The position numbers were made by a program, and so were the translations under genes. From positions 13,176,385 through 13,240,384 of the forward strand of contig NC_092705.1 of assembly GCF_964275005.1 (NCBI RefSeq): 64,000 nt of DNA, in the 5' to 3' direction. The stretch's first letter is position 1, and every line of letters starts with the position of its first letter. The notes beneath the pieces were generated by a model. That model did not search any database. It was not told where the DNA came from and was given only the letters and a program-made list of their open reading frames with translations. The stretch is from Diadema setosum (Eukaryota; Echinodermata; Echinoidea; Diadematoida; Diadematidae). Positions 6,441 to 63,499 of the stretch are shown piece after piece.

Positions 6441-8075
6441 GTTAGTGTTGAGCCGTGCATTATACATACACGTATACTTACTTATTTTGAATCCCCATTC
6501 CAATGCACTATGGTCAAATTTGTATTTTTTTTTTGCCATTGTAGTCATTGATTTACTGTACATTTATTTTTAAAAACTTGTATTCATTTTGACAGTAATT
6601 TAAAGATGAATAAGTTTGAGCAGTATTTACGTGTGGCAGTTATGCAGATTTTGTCTCCATGGCCATGTCATCAAAGAAGTTTCTTATTTAATCTAATTGT
6701 GAAATTTGTTCAAAATAAGTAAATGCTTCTCAGTCTAATTGTAAGGAAAGCACATGACATCAATATGATTTATCAGTTGTAACTTGTATGAATCTTAACC
6801 AAACAGATCAGTTTGGGGAAAATGCCATTTAACAATGAGTGGATAATATTGTGAATTTACTGCAAGAACATCTGAAATGAATAGTACCATGTGTTGAGGC
6901 AGTGTGTTATTTATCAAAATCACCTTACCTTGAGTAAACCTCTTCAGTTTTGAGCTGTTTGACCTGGAATTAAGATTTACATAACAATTCTCCCTGTAAA
7001 TAATCTTTATTGTGTGTGATTCCCATACGGGCTAGTTTTGCCCAGCAAGCTGCAATTTTCAGGGGCATATACAGCTGAGTGCAAAGCACACAGCAAAATG
7101 CCTGGTTTATCTGAAAACATGCAACTCTGTTCAAAACAAAATACGTGCATTCTTGTGTGCTGTTGGAAAGCTGCCTGTATACAGCATAAACATGTAGAAA
7201 AGGTGGGAAGTCGTATGTCACACGGCACACTTCATTTGAATCACTGAAACCTCACCCGTGGCTGAATTGTATGCTCCAGCAGTTTGTGTCAAAATAGAGC
7301 TCCCCTGAGATTTGATAATAGCCCACACTCTGCTTCAATAGAATGAATGTTTGTTCGGTGGTTCACTGACAAAATTTGGTATAGACAGGGAGGTGGAAAG
7401 ATACCTCCCCGGTATAGATAGGCATTCATCAGTGACCTCAGCATTCATCCAAAGTGAATACTTTCATGTTCAAATGTTATTTTAAACCAGAAACATTGTG
7501 GCATGAAACTTTTGCAAATTGCCACTAGCATTCAGTCCATTGTGTAGACAAAACTTTTCCCCAATGTGCATTTTACTTTCACAAATCTCTGCTCCTTTTG
7601 AAATTTGTGAAAGTTTCATGCACATGGAAATTGCTGGTTTTACAGTAATTTTTGCACCTTTGCTTTTCAATATTTCATTTTGATCGTACAGGCCTATGCA
7701 GAACACCTTTACAGGAAACAGTAAAGAAAAGGCTTTTGTCATAGACTTTCTTCTTCTTTCCTTCTAATTTCTCTACTAAATGGAATCTCTTACATTCTGG
7801 ATGAAAAGTAGATGGCAAAAGTTCCAACAGATTTTTTTTTTTTTTTTTTTAATTTAAATCAGGACATTACGAAAGCTTTGCAAGAATCAGAACTTCAGTG
7901 ATATTTCTTACAATTGTGTCAGATGAAATGGTGGAAGTATGCAAATATATCACCGGAAGAGATGATTAGATACAGAGTGTAAAGATGATTTCGATCATTA
8001 TTTTTTTATTACATGTATTCCAATCTGATCATTCATATCATTGTCTTTCTCTTTTTCTTCCATTATGGATATTAG

Positions 8076-8282: not shown

Positions 8283-8454
8283 ATGTCTTCACCGGAGCAT
8301 GCTGCTGTCAGAGACGAAATCTCTCTCATGCTCCAAAATGACCTCCGACAGGCCAACACCGGTGGAGAAGGGGCGGGTCCGGAGACGGAGGAGACTTCCA
8401 TCAGTGATGGGACAGGAAATGGGCGCAAGGAATATGAGAGACAAAAATCCTCAG
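8283..8454 (+). CDS. Gene 1 coding exon 1: cytoplasmic tail
   Basis: Residues 1-57, starting MSSPEHAAVRDEISLMLQND. Acidic and polar. DEISLM resembles a [DE]xxxL[LIM] sorting signal, which would fit an internalised receptor, but this is speculative. Donor TCAG|GTGTGT leaves phase 1. Confidence 0.8.
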
Positions 8455-8863
8455 GTGTGTGACCAACTGCCTCAAATACTTTCTGTATGTTTGTATACTA
8501 TTTGTGTGTGTGTGTGTGCATACATGTGTGTTTGTTTTGTTTCGTTTGTTTATATGAATCTGCATTTTTATGAAATCTTTCTCTGCATACTATATGTGAT
8601 TAGGCAGCACAGGTGAGTGGAATACTACATGTAGCTGCCTTTGTATTTGTTTCATTGTAAATATGATGCTCATATCGAACAAAATAAGATTCAAATAAAG
8701 AATAATCATTAAAGTGTGTATGTTTGTTTGTGTGTGTGTGTGTGGGATGACACAGTTTAAACAGTGTCTTTAGGTTCATTTTATTTTTGGCCGTGGACAG
8801 GAGAGCAGTAGGCAATGGCAGTTTTCATATTTATCAGACACTTTTTAGTTTGACAGTTTTACC

Positions 8864-8921
<58 letters not shown>

Positions 8922-11900
8922 GTCATACAACCATGATTTGACCACAGCAGCAACTTGTTCCTGCAAGTGAGAAGATACAAGGGATTACATGATCACAAGG
9001 GGAAAATTGAAAAGGAAATGCCATATTTAGAGTATTTCTATACGGCCATTTTTACAATCAGTGGTGTAAAACACGGTTTTGGCACTAATTGGTGTATAAC
9101 TTTCTTATACACAGACAGATATGCATTATTTTTTCTCATAAACTTACCACCCACAGTGTCTACCTTGGGTACCTTAATGAACTTTCCTCTCTTTTTCTTT
9201 CAGATGTGGCATGCATTTACATGCTTGAAATCCAACACTTTTGGTGTATGCACTCTGACATGGTTTTTTTGTCAGATCTAGCATATTAAATTGTTTATTC
9301 TTTTTCATTATTTTTGTTGTTGTGGTGATAGACAGGTATCCAAACTTAAGAACTATTATGTTTACCAGGTTCTGCTTTGTCTTCTTTAAAGACTGAAATT
9401 GTCCAAACTTTATGTTTCGGAGGTGACATTTTCCGTTAACAGTTAACCCCTCTTTTGAGTTAGCTCTTGCTCACAATTATAAAATTCAACTTTGCTAATT
9501 TCCATCAAAACAGAATAGTAATCAGTCTGACTTAACTTCGATCCAAAGATTATTTGATTCAAATAGCTTATCATTTTTTGGTGAGTGTTTATAAATTTAT
9601 GCAACTTTTCCGTTAACTTTTCTGTCACCTCCGAGACAACAGATTTATGTATTTGATTTTTTTATTCTTGACATCAGTTATACATTACATTTACAAAAAT
9701 GTAACATATCCCCTCACATTATCTAAGAAGGAAGGTAGTAGAAATATAGCCTGTTGTTTTCATTTCGGAGCAATTTACAATTTTCCGTTAACACTTGTCA
9801 CCTCCGAAACAATTGTCACCTCCGAAACAACAAGCGTATTATATTTGATAATTTCTCGAAGACAAAGCAATTTTGTTTGATTCTGTCCAATTGACAGGAA
9901 TCTCTTTTGGATGAAAATAGTAATATGGCAACAGGAAGTGAGAATTTTCTAGAGATTAATAAAAGATCTGATAAAAACTAAGAATTACTGTTTCGGAGGT
10001 GACAAAACACTGTTAACAAGAGTTTTTGCTCATTTCTATTGAAGAGAAACCATATCATGTACACCAATGGTTTCATTTATTTTAGTAACATAAGTCTCAA
10101 AGTGGAGAAATCAACTAACACACTCTCACTCTTATTTTTATTACTATACTGTACGTTTTAGTGCAAATTTACATTTTTTCACTTTTTTAACAAAGAGAAT
10201 GCACAAAATACACCCATCTGTTGTAAATATAATATTGTAATCAAGATCAATTCTCCTGCTTTAGTTAAGTAAACATATAGATGCTTTCATCTTAGAAACT
10301 TGATTTCCAATTTAAGCAATTTAGTTGTGAAGATTTACCAATCACAGCTTTCCATGTAGGTTGCTTTTTCTTGTGTTTCGGAGGTGACATTGTTTGTTAA
10401 CACCATATTGTTATGTGATAGTGAAAGGCAAGACTTCAGTTCCTTTTCACTATCTATTAACATTTTCAAATACATTTAATATCTACAAAATCATCACAGT
10501 AGAAGTGACTTTTGTATACCTAGCTCACCAGAATTCCCTTGATACCAAAGTGATACATGTGGCAGTTCATGCATGCCCTAGTCCACAATCTTAAAAAAAT
10601 CATAAAATAATCAAACTCCACAAAAAGGCCACATGCCTATAGCTGGTGCACAACTTGTTCTTGAATTCTTAGTTGTTGTTTTTCCATGTACAACGTGGAA
10701 ATCATAAACAAAATTATGTGATTTTTTTTTTAATATGACAATAATTATTACATTTTCCAAGTTGAACCAACTGTTTATGACATTGTATTTTTAAACATTA
10801 TTGAAGTTATCTGACAACTAAAGTGAACAGAGGAACAAGTCCCCAGGACTGGAAAGGGAAAGATCCAAAAACAAGATTTGTAGTTGTATCTCAATATAAT
10901 TTTGATGACGTGTTTACCTTGTTTTGTTATTATGTTTTATCTTAGAATTTGGCTTTAAGTACTGGAATTTCAAGGAAAAGAAAATGGTTTCTTAAAGGAC
11001 AAGTCCACCTTCATATACATGTGGATTGAGTGAATGCAACAACATTTTACACATCATTGAAAGTTTGGGAAATTGGACAATCCATTCAAAAGTTATGGTC
11101 TTTTTTAAATATCGATGCAATCACTGCTGGATGAGACGACTACGACAATGTATGATGTCACATGCATACAGCGATAAAAAGAAAATATAAGTGAATTTCA
11201 CAAAACTTTACTTTTTGAAAAAAGTGCACATTTCTTCAACTTGCTACTGATGTATGTTAGGGCAATATTATTCACCCTGCCTTCCAAAAGAGAGAAGTCA
11301 AGTGTTCTTTTGTTATGCAAGAAAAGTGAAAATATGTTGAATTTTCTTGATACTTTCTCTATATCCTTGTACACGTGTGACATCACAAGCTATAGAAGTC
11401 TTCTCATTCAGCTTTGACTGAGCAGAAACTTCAAAAATTCATAACTCTGGAACGGATTGCCTTATTTTCCTCAAACTCTCACTGATGTGTTTTACTAATA
11501 TTGCTGTATTTACTCAACTCTCGTGTCTATTGAGGTGAACTTGTCCTTTTTCGGTCCCTTATAGGGTTATGTGAGACCAGTTTGTGTCCGGGACCTTCTG
11601 AGAAGTTGATGGGTAAAATTACTGAACTAAAAAAAATTTTCCCCATAAGTTCACACAAACGCATTATGCTGCTCTCTTCAGCTGGGAAACACAAACTGTT
11701 GTCTTAACCAAACTGTAAAAATTTGCTAAAGATTAGTATGAATTACAATCTAAAACAAAATATGAGCTGGTATCCACTATCATGAAAGAGAATAACTAAA
11801 CAAAATAACAAGTAAGAACTGAAAGAAAGAGCTTATATTTGAAAATTAAAGCCATGAGGAAAGACATGAATGTTCACAATTGTATTAGCTAACACCTGAG

Positions 11901-14900
11901 AAGTTGGGTTGTCTCTGTGTTGTGTCACCTCCAAAACAATAACATGATTTTTTCTCATCTTATACTTTTTACTCTCAAAAGTAACTAATATATATGATTT
12001 GCTGTTAATTTTCAAGCAATTCAGAAAGATACATAAAATATATTTTAGTAATGTCAACAGTTTAAATGAATCTGGTATATAGAAAATTTATCCCAGATGA
12101 ACCAAACACCTTTCACCAGTATTATAACATTTGTATGGTGGCTATCAAGAATGATGAAGAATTCATGAACATCCTTGAATTAATCTATTTATAATACTAT
12201 GTGCAAACAAAAACATAATACAAGTCAAATAAGAATTTTTGCTTTTGGCATTCATAACCTATGTCCCCACCAAAAAATTACAATGGTACCCTCTGCAACG
12301 ATAACTTTAAAGATAGTGAATCAATCTAAAATACAATTTGAGGGATTGAAACTATAACTCATTGCCCACACCTTTAATACAGAAAACCCCATTCAATTTG
12401 CTTCAAAGGTCAAAGACAAATGAGGATTTTTGTAGAGCATGTCAGGAATCCCTTCCCTCCAAGTTCTGTATATTGTGTTTACACATTGATATGCAGTTCC
12501 AAGAGCATCCAAGTGCTAAACTTGGAAGAATCAGACTCTTGACATCCTTTATAACAATCCACATTTCTTTGAGACCACTTAACCAAATTGACTGGGGCTT
12601 TCTGCAAAATAGAGCTAAGATGTTATAATTTAAGACCCCAAAGTAGATTTTAGCTGATTTAATCATATTGGGTGCTATCAATGCAAAAGTCTAATTGTAT
12701 TTTTTTTTTTTTTTTTGGGGGGGGGGGGGGAGACATACTATATGAATACTTGAACACAATGTTAACATTGAATGTCACCTCCGAAACAAAGTTATTCTTC
12801 CCTGGTGTTGTGGAATAAAATGTTCTGAGAGCGAAGAAACATTACTAAAATGATCTTACACACTCATTTCAATTTAAGGTAGAAAATGGAATGCCATGTT
12901 TCTTCAGGTTACAATATCTAGCTTTAAATATGTCTGTCATATTCTTACTGTAAATGAATATTTCAACACAATGTTAACATTGAATGTCACCTCCGAAACG
13001 AAGTGATTCTTCCCTGGTGTTGTGGAATAAAATGTTCTGAGAGCAAAGAAACATTACTAAAATGATCTCACACCCTCATCTCAATTTAAGGTAGAAAATG
13101 GAATGCCATGTTTCTTCAGATTACAATATTTAGCTTACAACCTTCGTCCAAATGGAAGGCAAACTACCGGTGCCCACACTAATTAATGAAGTGTAAAAAA
13201 AACACTTGTTCTGTGTGGTTTATCTGCTTGAAACAGGAGTTAATTTCTTGTTCTCGAGTTATAATTATCAAAAACATTGATACAAAGAAGAAGTTTTGTG
13301 TTATTGTCACTTATTCTCAAAAAAACTGAGTGTTAATATTAATGTCACCTCCGAAACATTCTATTATGTTAACTGTCACCTCCGAAACATCCATGTGTGA
13401 AAAATCCAAGATTTAAAGAAATGATTGGAATTTCATTTAACCTACATAGGAAGGTAGCCCTTCTTAAAGACTTGTTATATAATAGAGTTTGACCTGGCTT
13501 GCCCTCCAATAAATAGTTAAAATCTTAAAAATTGCATGTCAATTGGTATTTTTACCAAAAATTTGTAAATCTCATGTATTTTTTTTTAATTCACTTTATA
13601 TTCAACCCCCAAATAGTTTTGATTCACAAACTATATATTGTTGTTAACCATATAAACTTTGCATGGTGAAGTTTGACTACACAGTTTTGTCATTGTGGTG
13701 CAATTCATGAAAACAAAATTTTGCTTAAATTTACTTCAGGTGCCAGGGTTTTCCTTAAATTACACCAATAACTCTTCAGCTTTAAGGTCTGAATTGTTAT
13801 TTTTTCAAAAATTTGAATACTTTCCAACAGGAATCAAACAGAATAATGAAAAAATATTTTGTTTGAAATTTTGACCCTCTGAGTACAAAAGTTACACCAC
13901 TGATCGTAAAAAAGGCCATACTGCTTCACTCCAAATATTGGGAATGGGGAATTCAAACATGTCCAATATAATGAAGCCAAACATGGACTGAAAACAAATT
14001 CTCTCTTATTTATTGTTGGTGCATGTTGTGCTTCTAATATGGCTCAAGTACTTCCCTATAGGAAGACAATGTGAAGCTGTGGAAACTGTGTTGCAGGAAC
14101 TGCTACAGTTGTAATGCTACCCTGCCAGCTGACAAAAAAAAGGGGGTTTTATAGACATGAACTTAACCCATTCACAACCAGTAGCAACAATTCTAGGGCT
14201 GATAACATGATGAGGGGAATATTTATGATTTACTTCTTAATTTTGCTTCCTTTGTTGGTGTATAGAAAGAGAAAACCCCATTGATTGATATCTGTGAACA
14301 CAATTTCCTTTTGGAATGATGTTTGCTGCAATCAATCAACTTTGTGGTGAAAATGAGTTGTTTACTTTGGTGGATGATGAAACTAATTGGCCAAAACCAT
14401 TCTCAGTCAGTTGAATGGATGGTATACAGTTTTGGTTGGGATGCGGTTTCAGGTTTTAACCTTTTGCAAGATAATTAGAAGCCACTTGTATGAAATATTA
14501 AAGAACATACAATTCTCGGAGGAATTTAAAGTTTTTTTTAGTGATGAAAATCATTATTGAGATACAGTGTATCTAAAAGCAACACAAACAAAGTACTCGT
14601 ATAAAGATAATCCCAGCTTCTATTAGGACCACTTTGTTTTGTTTGTTTGTTTAGATATCTCAGCCATTTCAGAATTGATTTTCATCAAGAAGACACTCAA
14701 TTCCTCTTAAGAATTACATGCTCTTTAGTATTTCATACAAGTGGTTTCTAATCATCTTGCAAAAAGTTAAAACCTGAATCCCCATCTCAACAAAAATCAT
14801 ACCATCCCTTTAACCCTCTATGTGCCCAGACTTGTAGCATATAGCTTGTCACGTTTTTCATCGGCATTCTGTACCAAGGTAATCCATCCAAACTTGATCT

Positions 14901-17900
14901 TCTTTTCAATTAGCAAGTCCTCTCAGGTGTCGCATGCACCTCATTCCAAAGGGAAGGCCATGAACGTGACATAATAGGGTTTAGGGGAATTTGGTAGTCT
15001 CTATTCATTGCCAATAAGTTTCCAGATATCTGTACCAGATGGTGGAGAAAGCTGTCCAGTGCAAGGGCAATCCGTTAACAAGGCACAGTGATGGTTGATG
15101 ATTATCAATGAAAAACGTTGGACAGGAATTTCGGCCTTCACATCAGAGCTAGGGATTACCCCTACCTTTGTATTGTTAGGAAGGTGACTCAGTGACAGTT
15201 CCTGGCTACTTTTAGTTCCTGGTTTTAGTGGCTGTAGTCCTCTAGCTTACCTCTGAAATCCAGAGAATTGATGTAACATTGCCAATTTGCAAAAGTCACA
15301 TTTAACTCTCTTGGCATAAGGATCTTGAAGGGCAAATTCATGACATGTCCACAATGACGATAATTAATCAGCACAAAATTAAGCACACAGAATGGTAAAT
15401 ATTTCATAAAAATCAGAAATATATAAAATATTAAAAAAAAAAGTTGATAAATTTCTAAGTTTCACATACAGTATTATATGTTTTTACAGAATAATATCCA
15501 CAAGTGCCAGTTAGCTGAAGTGCTCATGTGATAGACGCACAACTGTCCTGTTGGTGTATGTATACAAAATATGCCATAAAATCATGTGTTTGGTCCATGA
15601 TTTAATAGCAACTACAACGCTCTACACATTAGTCATCGTCGCTAAGCACAAAGAAAATTAAATGAAGAGGATTCAAGTTTTTCTACTTGATAGTAAGTAC
15701 AAAAAAAAAATGAAGAAATTTAGTCAAGATTATGAATTGCTTAATGGAAACATTGTGGAGTGTGACATCATCACCATATAAAATTTCCATGCATAATTAT
15801 GTGCATGCTACTGATTTCTCCATAACTTTCTATGTGATTTATTGTTCCCGGAGGAATCTGTGATTGTGATAAAATTCTTTTCAAATTTTGACTGTAGCCT
15901 ACGCACAAAAGGATGCGTCCAACACGGCAGTACTGATCATGGGCTCCATGGCCTGTGTGCTGATAGCCATCGCTATCGGTTTCATTGCCGGGTACTACAC
16001 CCACTCTGCCATGAGCAGATCGACGGTTGCCATGACAGCAGAAACCAGAGAGACCATGCGCATGGAGGCGGTGATGGCGGTGTCGCAGGAACAGATAGCC
16101 GAGTATGAAAGGTGAGAGTTGTTATGAAATATATCGCACCTGCCATGAGCAGACTTGCTTTCCCACTAAAAGTCATGTGACTAACACATTACCTCATGGA
16201 GAATTGTAGTTGTGATTATGAATCCATTCTCATCAAGTCCCCTGGAGCTTGAGGAGGTTGCCATGACAACTGTAAATTGTAATAATAATGATAATAACAA
16301 ATTCATATGGAGCACATTTCAAACTTGAAAAGAATTTCAATGCGCTTTACAAACAAACAAACAAATTATACCATAATACAAAATATAACAAAAATTACAA
16401 ATTACTAAGCACAATATATTAGAGTTGCCAGTACTACTGAGATAACTGCATTAATGACTTCAAATTACGATAATGATAATAAATGTCATTTATTTAGCAC
16501 GTAATGCGGCTGTTTCTAAGCATATTGGAAACACAACACAATAAGAAAGTTGAATTAAAATATGGAATATAATTACTAATGTTGTGGTATGTACTCCATA
16601 CAAGCAATGGAGAGAAGGAATAGTTCATTTGATTCAATCAATGAGTTTTGAGCATTGATTCAAACTTGTCTACACTTTGTTTAATTTGAACATGAAAGGG
16701 CAGATTGTTCCAAAGAATTAATGCAGTGACAGAAAATGTGCTATAACCATGACAGGTACAAGTAGGAGGACGATATGATGATTGCAGCCTAGAGGAAAAA
16801 TGGAAAGATCAGGGTGAAGTATAGAGAAGCGGAGAGAAATCAAGTCTTTGAGATAAGATGGGGCAATGTTAAAATCTGTTTCATAAACCACAAGAAGGAC
16901 TCAAATGGTGTGAATGATTTATGGAGTGTGTTCCAGCCCTTGACATGAAAGTGACTGACCTTTATACATTTGCCCCGTTAAAGGCATATGTGTCACAAGA
17001 ATGAGTAAACAACTTGGCCGTGTAATATATGAAAGAAATATATCATACAGTATATATTCAGTATTCCAATGTCTGGTTTTAAGTAAAAACTGAATAATAT
17101 CCCTGTACTCGTGAAAAGTCTATTATTGATGCTCAACTCAGCACATTGTTCCCACGGCAGGCAGTACAGTGTGCTGCAAATTGTTTGATACATGCCTTTA
17201 TTATTTTAGGTTTGTTCTGTGGGAAGCTATTCACAAATTCCTGCAAACAGCTCAGTAGATGAGAGAGAAAAAAAGTCAGCGGGTGGAATCTTTCCGGAAG
17301 TTTATAACTCCAGCAAACCTTGTTGGTAACCCCTCTTTCAGGACATGCTTCCTCCTCTTCTCACCTCCCAGTCCGGAAGTTTTGAGCCGGGAGAAGCGGA
17401 AGGAAATACCAGGCTATGCTTAAAAAACCACTAGAAGTGTTTCCTCACTTGGCTTTTATTTTGTTTGTTTGATTTGTGTGAAGTGCTACCACAACCGTGC
17501 ATTGGTGGTGACCTTTCTTAATTATTATGTGATAATGAGACAGTTAAAAAAAAAAATGGAGTGATATTGTAGTATGATATTAACCAGTATACTACTGCCC
17601 CATCCAGCGCCTGTCTTTTGGAGGTTTTGTTTTGTTTTATTTTTGTGTTGTTGTTGTTTTGCTAGGGATTATTGACTGTTAATGAGTTTCATCTTGAGAG
17701 AGTACAGTAGTCATCTTACCTTTATTGATTAAAACAATTTCAATTTCAGGCTCAATTTTTATTGTCCATTTGGGAATTCATTTCGTTTCAAGTCTTAACC
17801 TATCACACATAAAACATTAAGCAAAGATATAACCACAAATCACAGGACATGCATCATAAAGAGAATTTTAACATATCATAACATACACAACATTTATATA

Positions 17901-20900: not shown

Positions 20901-23660
20901 AGTAACTGTTATTTTCACATACAGATATTTTCACAAATGAAGAGATCACAGACATTTTCTCAAGATTTTGTTTTTGTGATTTGTCATGGAGGCTATCGTT
21001 AGTGCACTTATGCCTGTCCATTCATGATATTTTCATGTGTTGTTAAATTCGTGGCCCAACTGTGATTCACAAATTCATGAAAATTGAATCCACTGTTGTG
21101 AAAAATAACAGCTCTTACAGTATTATATATCGTCCATTGCCTTTCAGATTTTATCATCAAGGAATGCATATTTTTGAGAAATGTATGTGTATCTGCAGGA
21201 AGTGAAGTAAGAATGTGTGTGATTATTTATTTGTATGTTGTTATTTCAAGATTATGATAGCTTCATCAAAATATGAATTCCAAACATGTTAAATCAATAT
21301 TGAAAAATATATGCTTGTACATATATTTCTAAATAAGGTATATCACAAGTTGATACTGTGCTCTGTGAATGTGACATTCAGATCAATGTATGACATCAAA
21401 GTCACTTCACTTAATAATTGGGAAAGTTAAGCACAAAACATGATGGAAAGTTCTGTATGAAGACTAATTACTGCAATGAGGATTATTTTGTCTTCATTTT
21501 CTTGGAAAGGAAGTGCTGGAACAGAAAGTTCCTGCCCACTGACATCTTGTTTTCTAATATAATTATACTGAAATATCATTAGATGCTTTGTTCCTGAACC
21601 AGGAAATGTGAGCGATGTGTGGGTTTAAAAGTGGTATATCTTGTGTTATCCTATTTCCTCATTCTCTGTGGTATCAGATGGCATTCACAGGTCCTCCATG
21701 GACTCCGCCAACCTTCCCAGCATTCCTGTGCAGCCGGTTTCCATGGAGACCGCCAGCATGCTATTGAGCAATATGACTGGTGTTCCAGCTGATGAGACCT
21801 GGATTGGAGGGCTGAATGTATCTTACCATGTTGGACTCGCAGGAGACAGTAAGACAAGTTGCTATGACATCACATATCATCAGCTTAGAACCAGAAGGGC
21901 ATTATTACAATTTCTTCTTCTTCTTTTTTTGTATTGCGTTATTGGTATCATGCTGTCGAGCTTGATTTTTTTTTCTCCATTATGGTGTTAATTTTGAATT
22001 ATCTTAATTTCAGGAAAACGTTGAAAATCAAAACCACAAGGGTGCTGTTTTACCTCATATTTGGAATAATACTTATAAATTTACCCACTTTTGATTAAAT
22101 AAGCTTCATATTTCATGAAAATTGATTGTTTTGTTTTTATTTATGCTCAAAATCTTAGAACACGATAGTGCCATTCTGGTTCTCAACTGAGAACCAGATA
22201 TGTGTCTTTTTGTCATTACCAGATCATGTGCAGTCTATAATTTAATCATGTGACTCCATAACTTTGATCTAGATTTAAAGTGATTAAGTTCCTCTTTCAA
22301 GTTGATTTAAAAGTAGGCAAACATGATAGCAGAAGTTTCATGCAAAGTGTTTGTCACAATCATGTATGCAAATGAGATGGTTATGATGTCATACCCTCAC
22401 AAATTCCCCATTAACCCTTTGTGTGCTTTGAGTGACGATTGCTGCAAAAACTCCATAACATTGTATACACTGTCCAAAACCCTTGTCACAAAAAGGATCA
22501 AATGGCACACAAGTTCTAAGTGGACATCCTTTTTGTGACATCAGTTTGGGAAGAAGAAATCTTATCCTTGCATCAAGCTATTTAAAGGAACAGTGTTGTA
22601 TTTGTGGAGACGAGGATTGGGCTTTTCACTCTTTGCGAGATACCAAGAAACCACTTATGAAATAGTACAGAGCATACCATTCTGTTAGAGGAATTCAAAG
22701 TTTATTTGATGAAAATCGGGTTTGGAACGGCTGAGATATCCAAAAACAAAAATTGAACAAAGCGATCGTAATCAAAGGTGGGTCCCACCTTTTATTAGGA
22801 TTGCTCTATTTTGGATATCTCGGCCATTTGAAAACTTATTTTCATCAAGTAAACATTGAGTTCCGCTTGGAATTACATGCTCTTTCATCTCATGGAGGGG
22901 GTTTCTCATTATCTCACAAAAAATGCTGAAAACCTAAAGTTAGTCTCAACCAAAACCATATGATCCCTTTAAGAATTGAATTGATTTAGCAATGTTGACT
23001 TTATAAACATTAGTGCAATGATAGCAGCAAAATTACTGATGAAAGTCTGATGATATTCTATTCTATTTTAATGGACATGTGTAATATCTTTTTTTATTTT
23101 TGCAATTTATAGCGAGACAGTCATGGTATGTGGAGCTTGATGTTCACAATGACATCATCCAGAAGCCTATCACTGATGTCGTAGCTACTCTGGAAGGAAC
23201 AGAACAACCTGGTAGGTTGCATAGTGTCTTGTCATTTTTATTTGACAAGGTTGAAGAAAAACAGACAATTCATGTATCCATTGGCTGTGTTTAAACAGAG
23301 TGTTAGTGCTGCAGCATAGTGTCAAACCTTTAAAGGGATATTTCAACATTAAAACATTCAATTTGTAGAGATATGGAATAAAGTGTGTATTGTAATATGG
23401 TGCTTGATAAAAATGTCTTCTGACTCCATGTTACTAGGTATGTTGTTACTTTGTAAAACATTGCTATGTTTCAAGTTAGATCCTTCATAAGATATTTTGA
23501 ATTTGACAGGTATCAGAAAGTTCCTTAATTCAATTATATGAAATTTAAGTGGTGACACAAATGAAAAAAAAAGAGACAAGAGTACATCCAAAGAGGGAGA
23601 GGAATTACAACTATATGAAGGCATGAGATAGATAGATAGATAGATAGATAGATGGGTAGG

Positions 23661-35889: not shown

Positions 35890-36700
35890 TATGTTTCAAG
35901 TTATTCCAAATGATTGGAATATGAGAGATCGTATGCAGGTCAACGTTCATACTTTTGGTATTAGAATACCAGGTAAAAATTGGGGGTCAAATGAGCACAT
36001 TGTTTAATCTAAATTCTTAGAAAATATATGATTATTAGACAATTTCATGAAGATTATAACTTACAAATATGAGGTGGATGCAGTCAGTGTAACCTTTGGA
36101 AGGAAGAAATTAAGGAAATGCTATTGAGAATAAAACATACAATAATTTGTCGGAAGTACAGGGAACATCAATATAAGTCCCTACATATTGCCTTATATAC
36201 TAAAGAACACCTTTGTAGATTTGGATTTGCATCTGATAAATCATGTTCCTTTTGTAAAAAGGAGGAGATGACATATCCACATATATTTCTTTTTTATGAA
36301 AAAGTTCAAGGAACTTGGTAAGAAATATCAGATAGATTAGATTTGAGGGAAATAGACAGCAGTGATTGGAAATTGATTTTTATGGGGATCCAAGGAAACT
36401 CTCATGGAATCAAAATGTGCAATTCCATTATTTTCATTATAGAATATATTATATATTTGTCCAGATCAAAAGGAGCGCTTCCTTCAATGAATTAGATTGT
36501 AATGATGATTATAGATTATAAAATCAGGAAAAGGAATTATCAATTATAACTTGTAAAATAGGGTTACATTTACTGAAATTGGAAGAGTTAGGGAATTTGA
36601 GTGTAGTACTCTGTGTTTATTGAACTTTTTCAATTATTTTGTTTGGCAGGCTATAGGATGTAATTGTTTGGGTTTTTGTTGTTATTGATTATATGCTTTT
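35890..36700 (+). mobile_element. LINE 3' fragment with reverse-transcriptase zinc-binding motif
   Basis: The frame at 36118-36321 encodes LHIALYTKEHLCRFGFASDK followed by CSFCKKEEMTYPHIFLFYEK, the pattern of the zinc-knuckle domain (zf-RVT) that follows the reverse transcriptase in L1/Tx1-like LINEs (CxxC, then H; the usual last C is replaced by Y). Upstream, VIPNDWNMRDRM may be the same ORF; downstream, 36360-36490 in another frame continues in LINE-like style (IIFIIEYIIYLSR). The fragment is frameshifted and 5'-truncated. Family assignment beyond non-LTR is uncertain. Confidence 0.6.
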
Positions 36701-38258: not shown

Positions 38259-41200
38259 GTGAGATAAAAAGCATCAGTTCCTAGTTTCTTTTTAGTCCCA
38301 CACGTTAGATAGTATGCTGGCTGGTTCAGTTGACAGAATTACAGAATGACAGCAGCACTTCGTGTCTAGATCTACCGTTCTATACCGTATACCCAGTGGT
38401 AAATTAGATAGTCTCGATCCAACATCAGCTATATTATGTGACACTAACAGCTACAGTTAGTCTTGTAGTTGTAACATTCATGTTGAACCTAACATCATGC
38501 ATCATGCCGAATAGGTTGTAATTGTATGTTTATGCTAGTTCAGTTTTCATGGTTTTGTGTGTGTTTGTCAGTGTGCACATGGTATGGCAGTTGAGTTAAC
38601 TGAGTGAGTGTAGAATTTCAATGAATGAGAATGGGAAGCTTGCCTTGGGCCTTATATAAATCACCTTTATTGTCATCATTGTCATTCTCATTGATTATCT
38701 GGCCGAAAGATCGGTCTGTATCTGGTCATCGGGGATATGTTCCACGGAGACTGCGTCTGGCTTCACGGAATCCCTTTTCATTATAGGAGAGCCGATCGGC
38801 GATAGAGTAAAGAAAAAAAAAAGAAAAAAAAAGGATAAAACTTGAAAAAATCCTCCGGACAGACAGATTTTTCTGTCTAGGTCATGACATTGATCACTTG
38901 CTTGGGTTAATTAATTGTACGAAGCAGTTCCCATTCACCTCCTCTAGCGCCGCGGCGTGGTGCCATGTCCAAATGGTTGCAGTCTGCTCATTGTGTCATT
39001 TGTGATTTACATTCACTGGTTGCAGCCCATTTCAATTTGTAGTTCAATTCTAGTCTATATATATGCATGCCAACATTCATGAACTCGTATCGTGACTCCA
39101 GCTCCAGCTCTGTTCCACATCCGGCCTGATTTTTACACCCGGTTAAATTATGTCTGGTCATCCATCTTTAATAGAATCAAGGCTGAGCTACGAGGCTGTG
39201 AAATCCTTAACACGGCTTTTTGATTTTGGGACTAATCATACCAGAGAACCTGTAGTGGAGCATGCACAATTTTTTTTTTTTTTAAATGACATTAGCGTGG
39301 TGCAACCCAGCCCATATTGTGAACATGAAATAAAGAGGAACTTCAATTTATTCATTGATAGATGCATAGATACAACAGACAGAGATATTTTTTGTTTTGT
39401 TTTTCTGGAGAAATTTGGTTGCACATGTGCAGGGAATTCTATACCATGTTTGATACACATCTTAACCACGATTCATGAAGTGTTGAAATAAAGGCCTAGA
39501 GGCCAAACGCATTTTAGTTGCCAACACATTCTAAAGAAGCAAAGTCATTATTACAGCTGTATATACCTGTTATGACACATTCTACCCAGTTAAAGCAGAA
39601 TAAAGGCCATAAAGTCATAATGTCTCAGTATACAAATTTTTTGTTGCAGAAATCAGCAGAAATTTCCAATCAATCTTGTGTTTGTGAAATTGCATTCTTG
39701 CATGGCAATGAAAGAGCACACATCACACTGTCTATCCTTATACCATGTACCATGGTCAACACATCAATTCACTATTTACAGCAAACGTAAGATATTTACT
39801 CTTTCATGCATGCATGCAAATCAACAGTTGAAGTTTTCAGTACAGTTATTTAAAGTGCATGGTGTCTGTCTGTGAGCTAACTCTTATTCTATGTGGTATT
39901 TTTATTTTGTCAATGAGTAGCAAATTTTCTCTGGAGTTTATTATGAGTGAGTTGAAATCAACACCAAATGAGTTCAATTATGATTTTCTGTCTTTAGCTG
40001 TGCTAACTGTTACATATGTCAGAGATGACCAAATTGATCTATAGGGATTTTATGTTGAAGCAGAAATATTATGTTCAAGTTGCTGATGAAATAATGCACT
40101 GCAAACATAGATGTTGTAACATGCAGCATCACAGAATGGATGTAGCTAACATTGTGTTATGCCGGAGAAATATCACCATGTCAATGAAATATCTTTTCTT
40201 GAATTTTTTGATGAATCATGTTTGCTTCCACAGATGGAGAGGCCAAGTCAGAAGCAGAGGCGAGGCGATACATGGAGAATGGCAACACCTTGTTAGCTGC
40301 CGGACAGCTTGCTGATGCCCTGGCCCAGTACAATGCTGCAATAGGTAAGGGATTCTAACCCGGATTGTAAGCTTTAAGGGAAGACGGTAATGATATTCCG
40401 CTCATTTCTCTAGGGTAATGTATACATTACCTTGGCAGTTAAGTCCCATCTTCATGAAATGTTGAAAATATGATTACTGTTTATGTTAACTTTAGTTTGT
40501 AAGTTATTCTCTCTCTTTCTTTCTTTTTTTTGTTGTTGTTGTTGTTTCAAGTTGATAATGATATGTATATTGTACAAATGAACTTTATACAAAAGTTCAT
40601 TTACAGTGTATATGCCTAAAGAGGAAAGAGTGTTAGGATCAGGGTCTACAAGCATGAAATATAATGCTTTTTCTTGTAAATGACAGTAGTGCTTCTCAGA
40701 TTTTAGATTTTAAAGGTTTTGCATTTTTATGGCAATTATCAGTCCTAACCAACTCTGAACTTTGGGGATAATCTTGACTGCAATCCAAACTGGTTGTTCA
40801 AAGTTTTAAGAATTCACTTACCGGTACTGCATACTATAATATTGTTTGAATACAAAGTGTAGTAGATAGACATAGGATTGATACAGTATTCAAAAGATAT
40901 CAACACTGGTTTGTGTTTAAAATGAGAAATTACTGATGTTCCCTGCAGACAATGACCCTGATAATTACATGGTCTACTATAAGCGGGCTGCAGTCTACTT
41001 GGCCCAGGGCAAGAGTAAGCTTGCGCTGCCCGACCTCAAGAAAAGCATGGACCTGAAGGCAGACTTCACTCCGGCCATCATCAACCATGGCAACATCCTC
41101 TTCAAGCAGGGACACATATATAAGGCACGAGAGGACTACGAGTCAGTGGTGAGTTGATGGGGTTGACATCGACGCAAGTCTGCATGTATACAGACAGTGG

Positions 41201-44200
41201 GCGTGACTGCAAATTGATGCTAGACCAGATGACGTGGTAGTCTATGAAGTACTTGAAATTAACCTGTTGAAGACTAGTTTGGAGTATGCTGCCCCCCCAC
41301 GGAAAAAAGCAGTAACTGACATTTTTATGAATGTTTACTTTTTTGCAAAAATGAATAGTTTACCCAATGCTCTCCAATGTTAATAGGTCAGTTTTGCAAA
41401 AAGAAAAATGAAAGTGACCAAAAATACAATTTTTCACTTTTGCAAAAAGCAGTAACTGCATCCAGTTGATTCAACTTTGCAAGTTTCCCCACGGAAAAAA
41501 GCAGTAACTAACAAAGCCCACGGAAGAAAGCAGTAACTAACAATTTAGTCTTTATCATTCAGACTCTGTATAGTCCTTCCTGTATATTTTTATCCCTAAT
41601 ACCATTTATTTTTTCTACTAATTTTTTTAAAACAATGTAAACAGCAGTTTCTCCCATAATTTAGGAGAGTAGATATAAAAAGATTGTTTCACCATTAACT
41701 TGACCCTGCCCGCAGGGAATCATATGACAAGTTGTAGAAAAAGCTTCTTTCTGGAGACTAGCAAACCTGGCAGACTCAGCGCGCTCAGAGTGCAGAATAC
41801 GCGTGCAGCAGCTGCATGCGCACAAATTCTGCAGCATACAGTAACTAGCTAAACACTGCATCACATGCATCACAGTCACACTGCACAGTATTGCAAGTCT
41901 GGTACAGTCTGTCTGAGTGATCATGCCAGTGCTAACCATGCTGTCACACAGTTTCTGCGGTCCAGGCATGCCTGTAAATCTATCATGAATTGCAGAGGAA
42001 AAGTCATGGTAGCCATGGCTTTGGCCAGAACCAGAAAATCTAGGTGAGCTGAAAATATATTGAAGGGAGATGAGCACTAGTATTAATGCACTAACGTTAG
42101 TCTAATGTTAGATGTAGGCCCTAATGTTTAAAATAGGTCTACCAGATCTAAAGTTACAGAGTAGATCTAGATTCTAATCTATTGTTAACTGTTTAGTGTT
42201 AGACAAAATGTCAGTAGGCCTAATCTAACGTAGATCTAGGTCTAGCACTAACATTGGGCATAGATCTGTAGTCTAGCTTAAGTGTAACGTCAGAGTTCGA
42301 CTAGGATCTAAGACGAAGAGACTTGACTTTATTGTCTAGTCCAGGGTCATGTGTCAGGGGCCAGGCCGGGCACTCCAAAGTTCAATTAGGGTACATAGGT
42401 GTCTACCTTACTTTTACGCAGAATGCCATTCAATCTACAAGACCTAGTCTAGGTCTAGCGATAGGTCCTAGATCTTATAGATCTAGACTAACCAGAAAGT
42501 AGAAGAACTTTATAACCTGGTGGTGGTAACAATTCTCCTCCTTATGGTCATGTGACATGTGCAGTTACTGCTTTTTTTCCATGGGGAAAACAGCAGACTC
42601 CTGGCCGTCTGCAGTTACTGCTTTTTTCCGTGGGGAAACTACCCAGAATCAAGGGTGAGCCACCGCAGTAACTGCATTTTCCTAAATAACATTTAAAAAA
42701 TAACGGAAACATCATTTTTTCCTAGGTATTGTTAGACAACTAGGTATGGTGCATAATCATACCACAAAATTATTTTTGAATGTTTCTGTGTTTTTAAAGA
42801 ATCTGCAAAAAACACAAAATCGCATTTATCTCAGCTCAGCAGCTATGCAGTTACTGCTTTCTTCCGTGGGGGGGGGCAGTATGCTCGGGCAGGTGTCTAT
42901 GGGAAATGTGTGTTATAGTGAAAGCTGCTCGTCCTCAACGGGTTAAGTACTTGAAATATTATTGATACCTGGGGGTGATTCATCAATTTAGTCAGCGCTG
43001 ACATGTTGTCAGTGCTGACAATTTCAGTAAAATCCTTGGTTTTGATTGGCTGAGACGCTCTTGTCACTGACTGTTACCATGGTAATTGTTAGTGACTGAC
43101 AAGTTGTCAGCGCTGACTAACTTGATGAAATACCCCCCTGACCTAAAACTTCTTCACCATACTTTTGGGAAAGGGAAGGTTGATAGGGATCAGTGTGAGT
43201 TGATTTTGTTTTGTTTATTTATTTATTTTTTTTTTTGGGGGGGGGGGGGAGGAAGAAGGAGAGGAAAGAGTGATGTGAAAGATTTAGGGTTTACAATGTA
43301 CAGTGTACAGTGTATGTGTAATGTGGGTCATTTTTGTGTGAGAATTTGCATTTGAAATACCAAAGAAGATTGAAACAATGTAGAAAAACAAAAGTGAACT
43401 CAATTTTACTCTCTCAGAACTTTGTCTAACTCTTATTGAGTGACAGTCATCAGGTAAACTATAGTTGAGGAGACTTGTGCATGAGGCTTGAAGTGTATCG
43501 TCAGTACTGAATGTCTTTCCCTCTCCCGAAACTAACTACAACCTAAAATGTGGGCAAATGGACCTGAAATCCGTACCAAACACTGCGAAATGAAATGCTG
43601 CAATGGCTGCTGAAAGCCAAGTAAAAATGTTGCAGCATTTTGATCACTTCTCAGCCCAGATGGGAGTCTGCAGCGGGCAACTACAAATGTATCAAATATC
43701 TGTTTAGACTACATGGTTTGTTGATGTGGTAAATGCACCGGATGAATTTGATAGCCCCTGAACACCAATGTGTCATTTCCCACCAAACTCTCTCCCATGG
43801 AGACTGGGTTGTGTGCTCAGCTGTGCTAATTTTCTCTGTTATATTTGAGAAATATATATAATATATGCAGAAAGACATTGATTTATCATTGCTGAATAAT
43901 GAATTTACTATTAAACACTAATGGCACCCTGAATCCCAAATGTGTAACATATGTTTGTCCATTCCATATTTTAATGATATTTCTGCAACAAACACAAATC
44001 CTCTTGCTTAAAAATAAACACAAAAGATCGATCTTTCAAAGATACATAGAAAAAAAGGTCAACAGACTGGAAACACAGTTGTCAAAATAGTCAAACAAAA
44101 TGTCATTCTAATTTGCAAACATGACATACAGTACTAGTCTGCTCTGGTATATTCTTAAGCAAAATGATTCATATAAGTCATAATTGTAATTTGCCTGCAT

Positions 44201-47200
44201 TATTTCTCATCAGTGGCTGTAATTCGTCTGTTACATCTCAACAAAGAAGGACAAACAAACAAACAAACAAACAAACAAAGGAGCTCTGACATAATGGTAT
44301 GTGACTTGATATTGATTCCTCATCCAGTTAAAATACGACCGTCTGAACAAGGAGGCTGATAAGCAGCTGGGGTTGACCCACACAGTGGAGGAGAGGATCA
44401 AACTCGGAGACCAGATGTTTGATGCTAACAACATGGTCGATGCGCTGGATGCATACTCCAGAGTCATATTAGTAGGTTTTGACTCGCAGGTCATCCTTAA
44501 GTTCATAAGTATCAATAGTTCACTTTCTTCAAGTGTTGTTGTAGCTGGTCAGTACAAAGTTGCTGTTTTGATCTCACAAGGGTGGCTGGACTTTCACACT
44601 GGCACAAAAAACTGATACTATCTGCCCAAGAGCTGATGTGTTTGAACTTTGATTGTCTGATGCTCAATGTAGAGAATGTGAAAATTGTAATACTGAGTCA
44701 GTCCATTGGGTTGTGTCAACAAATTGCATGATGTCTATGTAACGGAGGCATCAACTCTTTCATTTCTCAATGAAGATCACTTCAAATGTGGTTAAGCTTT
44801 GCTGTGTCAGTATTAACTTTAGCCCCTGCTGTAGTAATGCATGTTCAAATCAGAAATATTTCATGAATTTGCTGCCCCACAAATTAATTTTCTCACCTAC
44901 GTTACATGGACATCACATTTACATAAAATTGGCAATTGATTCTCCAGTCTGAAATTGCAATACCCATGATGCTTGAGCAGTAAAACTTGATGGGATGCTG
45001 CTTTCTTTCTGAAGTCATTACTGGCAGTTATTTGCTTGGTTTTGATGAGGCCTGGATTTTGAGTTCGAGTATGTCACAAGAGATGACCCAACCCTGTGGA
45101 CTGACCCTACTTTCAAATCAAGTTGATGTGTGTGTACGATGTTATTGTTATACACCAAGGATAGTGAAAGAGATGGAGTGTATAAGAATTGCTGATTTGT
45201 CAGAGGCACAGACGAAATGAGACCAAACCTTTGCATTGAGACTGAATGGCCCGAATTCACGAAGGTGGTACAGTTGAAACCACGGTTTAAACCATGTTTT
45301 ATGCAGATTTCTTCTGCGTAAATACGATTGACAGATTGCGTACGCCAACAGATGGCCAGTAGCAAACGCGCATTGATACGCGCATGTCAAAGGTACGCCT
45401 ATTTCATGCTTATTTTATACCATCGTCAAGTTTAAACCACCTTTGTGAATTCGGGCCAAAGTGTCAGTCAGTGTAGCCAATGTATCATTGAAATCTGTGA
45501 GCTTTCGTTCAGCGAGAGAATATTTTGTGGACTTATCGCCATCGCTCTCCACTTCCTCCCGGCAGTATCTTCCCTGGAATGCCGAGATGCACAGGAAACG
45601 GGCCAAGGTGTACCACGAGATGGGGGAGCTCTATAAAATGATCGACGACCTCAAGGCGGTGACCAAACTGGTGCCGGACAGCACGGAGGTCTACCTTGAG
45701 ATGAGCCGACTTCACGACAGCCTTGGAGACTTGGACTTTGCCTTGGAGTGAGTGGCATGGAAATTTACAAGCAAAGCAAACAAACAATCAAGCAAAGGTT
45801 TTGCCGAATTGAAATATTATCTTTGATAACAACTTGTTACTTTAAAGAGGTAGCTAATCACTAGGCTCTCTTAGGAAAGTGATAGAAATCTGTAATTTTG
45901 AACACATTTAGTAAATCTGTCAACATACAAAAGTGTCTAAGAAAGAGGACCAGGATGTGTTTGTGCATATATGCATGTGTGTCTGTATATAGGTGTGTCT
46001 ATGTGCACAACCCAGTTTTGCTTTGGCATGATAAAAAGTGGTCAGGTAAAGATATAGGTTTTGATATTGATCTTGGCTGCTTCAGGAAACATAATGAACA
46101 ATCACTATCAAGAATTAATGCCGGCTTGGTTCCCCTCTGTTTTTCCCTTACAGAGATATCCGAGAGTGCCTGAAGCTGGATCCCGATCACAAGGAATGTT
46201 TCGCCCTCTACAAACTGTTAAAGAAAATCAAGAGATTTTTGGACGCATCAGAAAATTTTATCAGGGATGGCAGGTGAGAATGCCAGTAATCTTTGCATCT
46301 ATCTATCTTTTTATAAACAGTTCTGGAATTAAGATGTTCAATTGGAATTGGTCTTCGACAGCTTTGTTACTGCAGGGCTGCACACTAACCATTTTTTGTG
46401 TTGGTCTGACAGACAGGTCAGACTAATAGGAACCCAGTTTTTCCATGTTTTACTGGTCTGTTCCTGAAAAAGTTACTGGTCCGAAAGTGATTTTTACTGG
46501 TCAGGGACCGTCAGACCAATACCAGTGTGCAACGTTGGCTACTGTCTCAATGTGAAATTCTTCCATATTATCTCTATGTTTTTAATTCACATTTGATATA
46601 GTTGTAATACTTCTTTTATACAATGTCTGTTTCAATAGATAGAGTTGAGATTGTTTCATTGTTATTACTAGATTTTGATAGATACAGAGCTTTATTCTGT
46701 ACTGAAAATTATTTGAACATCATCTGTTTGATGCATAATATTTAAGGTCTGTTGTTTTCATTTTTTGTTTTTTGCCGCAATGAAACATGTAATTCTCATA
46801 CACAATTTTCTTTCAAAATTTAATATGACAGTGTGACATTTCTTTTAACTGCCATAATCACTTGAGAACTTATTCCATGAAAAGACTGGGTGTCTGAAAA
46901 TTAGGAGATTTCTTTTTTCAGAAACTCGATCTGCAATGAGTAATATCTCATATTTTCACCAAATGTTGTCATCGTATTTGTGTATACAGTGCACTCCCGT
47001 TACAACGAACACGGTTATAACGAAATTTCGTTATAACGAAGTAAAACTTCTGGTCCCAAAATTATCGCCATTAATGTCTAAGGTACGAAATTCGCTTATA
47101 ACGAACACGGTTATAGCGAAATTTTCGTTATAACGAAGTCTTTTCCGAGCCCCACGGGCAAAGAAAAACAAAAGAAATGTGCTTTGTTATAACGAAATGC

Positions 47201-60377: not shown

Positions 60378-60761
60378 AAGGGATAGTACAGTATTGGTGG
60401 GGATGAGAATTTGGCTTTTAACTTTTTGCGAGATAACAAGGAAACACTTATGAAATAGTACAGAGCATACCATTTTAAGAGGAATTCAGAGTTTGTTTGA
60501 TGAAAATTGGGTTTGGCATTACTGAAACATCCAAATACAAAGTAAAACAAAGCGATCGTAAAAAAGTGTGGGTCCCACACTTATTAGAATCGCTCTGTTG
60601 TGGATATCTCGGCCATTTCAAAACCAATTTTCATCAAATAAATGTTGAATTGCTCATAGAATTACGTGCTCTTTCATATTTCATAAGAGGTTTCTCATTA
60701 TCTCACCAAAAAATGTTAGAAATCCGAAATCGGGTCTCAACCAAAACTATACGATCCCTTT
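60378..60761. mobile_element. Palindromic foldback MITE, about 390-bp family, copy 5
   Basis: Starts AAAGGGATAGTACAGTATTG and ends ACTATACGATCCCTTT, with GCGATCGTAAAAAAGTGTGG then GTCCCAC in the centre. Closest to copy 4. Confidence 0.82.
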
Positions 60762-63094: not shown

Positions 63095-63499
63095 CTGCAA
63101 GTGATCAAAGTGATAAGAACATTTCTTGCAATTCATGGAGTAATTTTTTTTTAAGATACAAGCTGCTTTTTTCAAACATTTATACACATCATTGTTGTTT
63201 AATCGTCACTCTTGAAGTAATCAACAACTACAAAGAAAGAGAAACTAACCAGAAATATATAGATAAAATAATAAAACTACAACTGAAAAATGAGCAAAGA
63301 AAATGGGATTCCATTCAGTTTTGAGTCTGAGACCTCCAGATTGCTACACTGGTGCTCTTACCCACTGATCAATGGAAAACCTTAGTACAGTGTTCGCCCA
63401 AGAAACCCCCTTCCTTTTCAATGCTCATATGGTCAGAAGCTCACATAAACCTGACATAAGGCAGGATAGAAATCACCTTGTGACGTCCTGTATGGACAG

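What the first reader, a model, noticed from the sequence alone, without database searches (positions are those of the whole stretch)
9413..13389. Composite motif array TGTTTCGGAGGTGACA + GTTAAC, 11 copies in both orientations
Seen directly: a 16-base motif recurs 11 times in 4 kb (starts 9413, 9623, 9796, 9814, 9989, 10374, 11923, 12773, 12985, 13343, 13374). Eight copies are identical; the other three differ by one base. Most have GTTAAC within 13 bases, always on the same side of the oriented motif. The outermost copies are inverted. Spacing is irregular, so this is no simple tandem repeat. The likeliest explanation is a large non-autonomous DNA transposon with subterminal binding-site arrays. 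A regulatory array for a DNA-binding protein is the alternative. I do not know a described family with this motif.
Basis: partly seen in the sequence, partly recalled or inferred. Interest (0 to 1): 0.7.

Follow-up and report, generated by a model that had tools for sequence, protein, structure and literature searches.

The report
Intron array of identical protein-binding sites
What looks like a long intron of an animal peptidase gene carries eleven nearly identical 16-letter DNA words, most with a second short word beside them, that look like docking points for an unidentified protein and may be spaced as nucleosomes are.

Summary
In detail: 11 copies of TGTTTCGGAGGTGACA with at most one mismatch, none with 2-3. 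In 8 of 11, GTTAAC starts 0-7 nt downstream. The array lies in the inferred first intron (8455-15897) of a glutamate-carboxypeptidase-II-like gene. Copy flanks average chance identity while the 16-mer is 96.6% identical, so the word itself was kept. Two other repeats interrupt the array. With them removed, the 9 site clusters fit a ~194-bp, nucleosome-like lattice (R 0.957; 1 of 10,000 random sets). I noticed that pattern before testing it, and without the removal it is weak (R 0.80). A 47-nt inverted repeat (79%) brackets the array, so a transposon origin stays open, but no second copy in the window, clear target duplication or transposase match was found. Best reading: a multi-site regulatory or architectural element for a long-site DNA-binding protein with a GTTAAC partner; neither protein is identified. 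The host-genome search did not complete (12 calls), so the decisive test remains undone.

The parts
9413..9428 (+). 16-mer, exact; GTTAAC at 9435 and 9442
9623..9638 (-). 16-mer, 1 mismatch; GTTAAC at 9612
9796..9811 (-). 16-mer, exact; GTTAAC at 9787; first of an 18-bp tandem pair
9814..9829 (-). 16-mer, exact; second of the 18-bp tandem pair
9989..10004 (+). 16-mer, exact; GTTAAC at 10012
10374..10389 (+). 16-mer, exact; GTTAAC at 10396
11923..11938 (-). 16-mer, 1 mismatch (the CpG is lost); no GTTAAC nearby
12773..12788 (-). 16-mer, exact; GTTAAC at 12761; in first unit of the 212-bp tandem duplication
12985..13000 (-). 16-mer, 1 mismatch; GTTAAC at 12973; in second unit of the 212-bp tandem duplication
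13343..13358 (-). 16-mer, exact; ATTAAC in place of GTTAAC
13374..13389 (-). 16-mer, exact; GTTAAC at 13368, directly adjoining
12739..13136 (.). 212-bp tandem duplication (94% over 186 nt) that doubled one site
   Evidence: its 11 differences are listed
9023..9069 (+). left arm of the 47-nt inverted repeat that brackets the array (candidate TIR, or a second kind of binding site)
13892..13938 (-). right arm of the same inverted repeat (37 of 47 identical)
10994..11549 (.). MITE-like repeat nested in the array gap, with inverted ends; relatives at 47838-48341 and 63496-63832
12262..12735 (.). second nested MITE-like repeat, flanked by TA on both sides; relative at 26525-26111 (78%), also flanked by TA
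   Evidence: ends set by eye output
8455..15897 (+). inferred intron 1 of the GCPII-like gene (donor GT after 8454, acceptor AG at 15897, phases agree); no transcript seen
   Evidence: read; gene family (pieces at 19.6-24.5 kb only)

Best explanation
The array is a multi-site cis element. One sequence-specific DNA-binding protein with an unusually long site (about 16 bp, probably a multi-finger zinc-finger protein that works like CTCF, Su(Hw) or REST) binds each 16-mer, usually with a second factor, or a second part of the same protein, on GTTAAC a few bases away. The sites sit at about 194-bp steps, so all can lie in linkers between nucleosomes. Occupancy would open or phase that chromatin, and the element would act from intron 1 on the GCPII-like gene as an enhancer, silencer or insulator. 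Shown: the sites, their composite structure, the chance-level flanks, the two nested repeats. Statistically supported but noticed before tested: the 194-bp lattice. Inferred: the gene model, the protein, the nucleosome link, the regulatory effect.
For: 11 copies, 8 identical, none with 2-3 mismatches. Mean pairwise identity outside the 16-mer is at chance (0.27-0.31 against 0.281) and 0.966 inside, over 53 of 55 pairs (the two tandem pairs left out). GTTAAC 0-7 nt downstream in 8 of 11. The array is interrupted by diverged repeats: the first has a terminal branch of about 0.23 substitutions per site in a 3-copy comparison, the second is 78% identical to its one relative. At 10% decay, 3 or fewer mismatches in 176 bases would have P 1.3e-5. 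Lattice after removing the two nested repeats: 9 site clusters, R 0.957 at 194 bp, 1 of 10,000 random sets. The left cluster alone, nothing removed, gives 191 bp (100 of 10,000); the right cluster alone, second repeat removed, gives 193 bp (763 of 10,000). All 11 site centres lie within 16.4 bp of a node, which would fit a linker of about 47 bp. First introns often hold enhancers (general knowledge).
Against: The lattice was seen in the distances first and tested afterwards. Without excision R is 0.80 for the 9 clusters (211 of 4,000), and the wide scan then prefers 96 bp; removing the first repeat alone does not help (0.81), the second alone does (0.97). Random excision lengths reach the observed R in 261 of 4,000 trials (all). 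The right cluster without excision shows nothing (4,163 of 10,000). AT content is not higher at the nodes (0.655 there, 0.70-0.72 furthest away) and its amplitude at 194 bp ranks only 15 of 150 periods. The nested repeats date the array only if their divergence arose after insertion; at the divergence of the 212-bp duplication (about 3% per copy) the few mismatches need no selection (P 0.22). A few copy pairs do share flank similarity (up to 0.60 over 40 nt upstream and 0.475 downstream; 9594-9639 with 9772-9812 at 83%, gapped and GTTAAC included). No known factor for this word was found. The bracketing inverted repeat is left as a coincidence or a second motif.
Confidence: 0.5

Rival explanations
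1. A large non-autonomous DNA transposon (about 9023-13938, 4.9 kb; 3.9 kb without the nested repeats). The sites would be read by an element-encoded protein, either a transposase accessory protein (En/Spm TNPA-like) or an anti-silencing protein (VANC-like). The copy in this intron is a fossil or an exapted one.
For: 47-nt inverted repeat around the array (0 of 500 shuffles). Non-coding interior with motifs in both orientations. Dense clusters of long sites are known from mobile elements: 12 Su(Hw) sites in the gypsy insulator, whereas endogenous Su(Hw) sites generally stand alone (PMC2374998, passages); VANC21 motifs massed in non-coding parts of VANDAL21 (PMC5735166, passages). GC of 30-34% inside the stretch against 36-38% in the 2 kb to its right is weak support, since several other parts of the window are as low and 7500-7999 is at 33%.
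Against: No second copy of the arms in 64 kb. No Pfam match at a curated cut-off in 10 of the 27 ORFs of 50 aa or more; the other 17 were not searched. No clear target duplication (a 4-bp AATG is possible but weak, by eye). The arms differ pairwise by 21%, the motif copies pairwise by 3.4%. The inner arm is better conserved than the outer end, the reverse of what a TIR should show. 5 of 274 real-DNA control pairs reach the same arm score.
Confidence: 0.33
2. Remnant of an old tandem or satellite-like repeat of about 194 bp in which only the 16-mer and GTTAAC survived.
For: The lattice of about 194 bp and one real 212-bp tandem duplication.
Against: Motif orientation flips between neighbouring nodes. 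Self-identity of the excised stretch at lag 194 is 0.287, rank 37 of 101 lags; the top lag is 212, from the known duplication, and lag 189 is second at 0.301. Survival of the 16-mer alone would still require selection.
Confidence: 0.07
3. Origin or maintenance array of an integrated DNA virus (EBNA1-site-like or baculovirus hr-like; both recalled).
For: Form only: many identical long sites in both orientations.
Against: Exact composite pattern: 0 matches in viral contigs. The 16-mer alone: one match, in one 8.3-kb contig. Arm core: 0. The ORFs were not searched against viral families.
Confidence: 0.03

Closest known systems
gypsy insulator of Drosophila (12 Su(Hw) sites in 340 bp; PMC2374998, passages seen)
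   Same: About a dozen copies of one long protein-binding site in AT-rich non-coding DNA
   Different: There the sites are packed in 340 bp inside a known mobile element; here 11 sites spread over 4 kb in both orientations with a GTTAAC partner, and no mobile element is established. The motif is a different one.
VANC motif arrays of VANDAL transposons in Arabidopsis (PMC5735166, passages seen)
   Same: One motif massed in a non-coding stretch, partly multiplied by tandem duplication
   Different: VANC21 motifs are 9 bp, same orientation, often in tandem repeats. Here 16 bp, mixed orientation, two small tandem pairs only, and no element protein recognised. Animal, not plant.
En/Spm (CACTA) subterminal TNPA sites (recalled, not looked up)
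   Same: Motif in both orientations towards both ends of a DNA transposon, if this is one
   Different: TNPA sites lie close inside the TIRs; here the first site starts 344 nt after the end of the left arm and the arms are weak. No CACTA ends seen.
CTCF-type nucleosome-phasing sites (PMC12961432, passages seen)
   Same: A long-site factor that could act as a boundary for phased nucleosome arrays
   Different: CTCF is described there as organising about 10 nucleosomes around a bound site; here many lattice nodes would carry a site of their own. The motif does not look like CTCF's (by eye, from recall).

Membership tests
TIR DNA transposon, non-autonomous | terminal inverted repeats | tested here: inconclusive
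   47 nt, 79%; 0 of 500 shuffles but 5 of 274 real-DNA pairs reach the score
TIR DNA transposon, non-autonomous | target-site duplication at the ends | tested here: inconclusive
   ends not fixed; AATG possible, weak (by eye output)
TIR DNA transposon, non-autonomous | several genomic copies with common ends | not testable with these tools
   The genome search not answered in 12 calls; one copy only in the window
TIR DNA transposon, non-autonomous | transposase, its own or of an autonomous relative | tested here: inconclusive
   10 of 27 ORFs of 50 aa or more searched in Pfam, none at a curated cut-off; a relative could not be looked for
VANDAL/VANC-type anti-silencing array | VANC gene or relative that binds the motif | not tested
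   only ORFs under 100 aa in the stretch; no VANC model was run against them by name
gypsy-type Su(Hw) insulator | array made of the Su(Hw) core consensus YRYTGCATAYYY | tested here: not met
   the repeated word is TGTTTCGGAGGTGACA, which does not contain the consensus quoted in PMC2374998; compared by eye
Homotypic cluster of transcription-factor sites | several copies of one site in a short non-coding stretch | tested here: met
   11 in 4 kb; chance mean 0.43 per 64 kb at up to 3 mismatches
Homotypic cluster of transcription-factor sites | bound by a factor in vivo, with effect on a gene | not testable with these tools
   no expression, ChIP or accessibility data on hand
Tandem or satellite repeat | head-to-tail units with homology along their length | tested here: not met
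   lag 194 ranks 37 of 101; mean flank identity at chance; only the 212-bp and 18-bp pairs are tandem in the array
Nucleosome-phased site array | sites at one nucleosome-repeat-like period | tested here: met
   about 194 bp, R 0.957, 1 of 10,000; found post hoc and, for the full set, only after removing nested repeats
Nucleosome-phased site array | nucleosomes actually phased between the sites | not testable with these tools
   needs MNase-seq or ATAC-seq

The most novel reading that the evidence does not exclude
A new kind of invertebrate architectural element. A long-site (CTCF- or Su(Hw)-like) protein not yet described occupies an identical composite site in the linker of many nodes of an about 194-bp nucleosome lattice across 4 kb, so that the DNA encodes a pinned nucleosome array. 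It may have been delivered by a transposon and then kept by the host, since the sites look far less decayed than the repeats nested among them.
Probability: 0.25. Interest if true: 0.75.

Novelty: new variant of a known kind. Interest (0 to 1): 0.52.

Why it matters
Regulatory sites are usually short and degenerate (general knowledge). Eleven near-identical 16-mers with a frequent partner word, chance-level flanks and nucleosome-like spacing would be a clean natural case of a site array written to match chromatin, and a handle for finding the protein that reads it. If it is transposon-borne, it would be an animal counterpart of the VANC arrays or a relative in kind of the gypsy insulator. Either way the motif is an exact word with which one genome-wide search can decide.

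Tried and rejected
Coding repeat: the 16-mer reads as VSEVT in some ORFs, but spacings to GTTAAC are 0, 3, 5, 6 and 7 nt and orientations mix, so no frame is kept. Rfam at gathering thresholds: no match in the window. tRNA: none. Viral or prokaryotic source: exact composite pattern absent from viral contigs and genome contigs (the tool warns that records near the window's own genome may be left out). Literature for the motif: six words of 13-15 letters gave one unrelated cancer paper; six words of 11 letters gave 64 papers, 40 listed, none about this motif by title, probably primers; none opened. Six words from the first nested repeat's family, the arm and a tandem repeat at 56.2 kb: 0 papers. 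Topic searches on sea urchin transposons and repeats and on homotypic clusters in phased chromatin gave listings in which I saw nothing on this motif. Long decayed TIR reaching from the arms to the array: not supported (global score equalled or beaten by 127 of 500 resamples, local by 187 of 500). Sequence-level period of 194: none. AT-rich linker signature: not seen. Transposase: 10 of 27 ORFs searched, nothing at a cut-off.

Not done: Pfam search of the other 17 ORFs of the stretch; search against viral or defence families; comparison with orthologous introns (no eukaryote collection on hand); identification of the organism (it looks like a marine deuterostome invertebrate, recalled and untested).

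After the report check: searches were added. The number of joined peptidase pieces was corrected to four, the GC argument was weakened, and further results against the lattice were added.
Full report
Observation. The scan gives exactly the 11 copies reported, 8 exact and 3 with one mismatch, and nothing at 2 or 3 mismatches in the 64-kb window, against a shuffled mean of 0.43 and a maximum of 3. GTTAAC follows within 0-7 nt on the 3' side of the oriented motif in 8 of 11 copies (read; P about 1.6e-19), although GTTAAC as such is at background frequency in the window (19 against 16.3). Nine of the 19 lie inside the array, 10 in the remaining 60 kb. After a complexity filter the motif is the most frequent 16-letter word of the window (8 exact copies). 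About nine occurrences are independent, because 12773/12985 come from a 212-bp tandem duplication and 9796/9814 from an 18-bp one.

Setting. The window is animal DNA by its genes. Four ORF pieces at 19.6-24.5 kb on the + strand, joined, match glutamate carboxypeptidase III and II (E 2.6e-35 to 3fec), and one of them matches Peptidase_M28 above its cut-off. Reading the DNA, a first coding exon would run from ATG 8283 to 8454 followed by GT, and an exon with a hydrophobic stretch begins after AG at 15897 in the matching phase. So the array most likely sits in a 7.4-kb first intron, beginning about 1 kb after exon 1. This gene model is my inference. The hydrophobic exon had no Pfam match at a cut-off, the exon-1 peptide itself was not searched, and no transcript was seen.

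What was kept. Anchored on the motif, mean pairwise identity of the 60 nt on each side is 0.27-0.31 (chance 0.281), against 0.966 in the 16-mer, over 53 of 55 copy pairs (the two tandem pairs left out). Exceptions exist: 9413/9814 and 9413/13374 show 0.60 and 0.55 over 40 nt upstream, the best downstream pairs show 0.475, and 9594-9639 matches 9772-9812 at 83% with gaps, GTTAAC included. Some old local duplication may therefore be involved. Copies of a bare 16-mer with mostly unrelated flanks are not what plain neutral duplication leaves. Selection for the word, in the host or earlier in a mobile element, is the simplest cause.

Nested repeats and age. Two other repeats interrupt the array. 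One is 10994-11549 with inverted ends and relatives at 47.8 and 63.5 kb. The other runs from 12262 to 12735 and is flanked by TA; its relative at 26.1-26.5 kb (78%) is flanked by TA as well (ends set by eye). In a three-copy comparison (462 shared columns) the first has a terminal branch of about 0.23. If even 10% divergence had accumulated since insertion, 3 or fewer mismatches in 176 motif bases would have P 1.3e-5. The caveat is that part of that divergence may predate insertion. The 212-bp duplication (11 differences in 186) is too young to decide (P 0.22 at 3%).

Spacing. Raw distances look irregular. They are near multiples of about 190-200 bp once the nested repeats are set aside. I noticed this in the distances and then tested it. 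First test, with a rough length for the second repeat (445 bp): R 0.93, 2 of 5,000 random sets. With its ends fixed by the TA flanks (476 bp): R 0.96 at 194 bp, 1 of 4,000 for periods 150-250, 2 of 4,000 for 60-500, 0 of 4,000 with a gap-based null; repeated as R 0.957, 1 of 10,000. Without excision R is 0.80 for the 9 clusters (211 of 4,000; the wide scan then prefers 96 bp, 91 of 4,000) and 0.80 for all 11 sites (42 of 4,000). Removing the first repeat alone gives 0.81, the second alone 0.97. With both removed, leaving out the duplicated copy or the copy at 11923 changes little (2 and 5 of 4,000). Without 11923 the set reaches R 0.94 at 187 bp even unexcised (9 of 4,000). The left cluster alone, which needs no excision, gives 191 bp (100 of 10,000), and the right cluster alone 193 bp (763 of 10,000; 4,163 without excision). 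All 11 site centres lie within 16.4 bp of a node. With all 11 sites and the pair structure kept in the null, 0 of 3,000 random sets fit as small an arc. Against over-reading: random excision lengths reach the observed R in 261 of 4,000 trials, AT content is not higher at the nodes, and sequence identity at lag 194 ranks 37 of 101. A lattice of this period with sites confined to a stretch of about 47 bp beside 147-bp cores (recalled) is what sites in nucleosome linkers would give. Nucleosome repeat lengths vary by species and cell (PMC12961432, passages: sea urchin gastrula 218 bp, sperm 240 bp; about 190 bp in heterochromatin of cultured human and mouse cells). The organism here is not identified.

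Transposon test. An inverted repeat, 9023-9069 with 13892-13938, 37 of 47 identical, brackets the array. No shuffle of 500 reaches its score, but 5 of 274 random pairs of real 1-kb pieces of this window do. The arms have no further copy in the window. By my count on the alignment, the inner 21 nt match 20 of 21 and the outer 26 nt only 17 of 26. Between arms and array there is no more inverted similarity than in resampled sequence (127 of 500 as good globally, 187 of 500 locally). Ends and target duplication could not be fixed. The stretch has 27 ORFs of 50 aa or more, all under 100 aa; the 10 that I searched have no Pfam match at a cut-off. The low GC of the stretch (30-34%) is matched elsewhere in the window. 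So a mobile origin is possible, not shown.

Elsewhere. The exact composite pattern has no match in the viral or prokaryote collections, and the arm core none in the viral one. The 16-mer alone has one match in a viral contig, which chance would give in a collection of that size (my estimate). In the paper library, six words of 13-15 letters found one unrelated cancer paper, and the 40 listed of 64 papers for six 11-letter words are not about this motif by title. The host genome search did not complete (12 calls).

Comparison. Nearest in working are the gypsy insulator, with 12 Su(Hw) sites inside a mobile element while endogenous sites generally stand alone (PMC2374998, passages), and the VANC motif arrays of VANDAL transposons (PMC5735166, passages). 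I do not file the array under either: the words differ, and spacing and orientation differ. It does meet the plain definition of a homotypic site cluster.

Verdict. A real, strongly non-random composite site array that I could not find described. Most likely a multi-site cis element for a long-site DNA-binding protein, possibly nucleosome-phased, with a transposon origin as the main rival or as its history.

Noticed in passing
14410-14814, 22582-22972, 48426-48770, 50996-51386, 60375-60763: A family of repeats of about 400 bp, 69-76% identical and partly self-inverted, at five places in the window.
   Followed up: partly
36073-36321: ORF with a zf-RVT-like match (E 2.6e-5, 25.2 bits, just under the cut-off of 27.5): probably a remnant of a LINE-type reverse transcriptase.
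   Followed up: no
40921-41157 and 45449-45751: TPR-repeat exons, the first above Pfam cut-offs, the second below them; by recall a DNAJC3/P58IPK-like gene on the + strand.
   Followed up: no
47014-47479: Word GTTATAACGAAA seven times in both orientations within about 470 bp, another compact inverted-word cluster.
   Followed up: no
41306-42860: Word AAAGCAGTAACT seven times: four + copies starting at 41306-41527 and three - copies starting at 42563-42849, partly a 29-bp tandem repeat.
   Followed up: no
9429-9440, 9606-9617, 9781-9792: TTTTCCGTTAAC is shared by three of the sites on the + strand whatever the motif orientation; may be a third sub-site (read).
   Followed up: no
9062, 13760, 13892: TGGTGTAA occurs only three times in the window, all near the two outer ends of the array region.
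   Followed up: no
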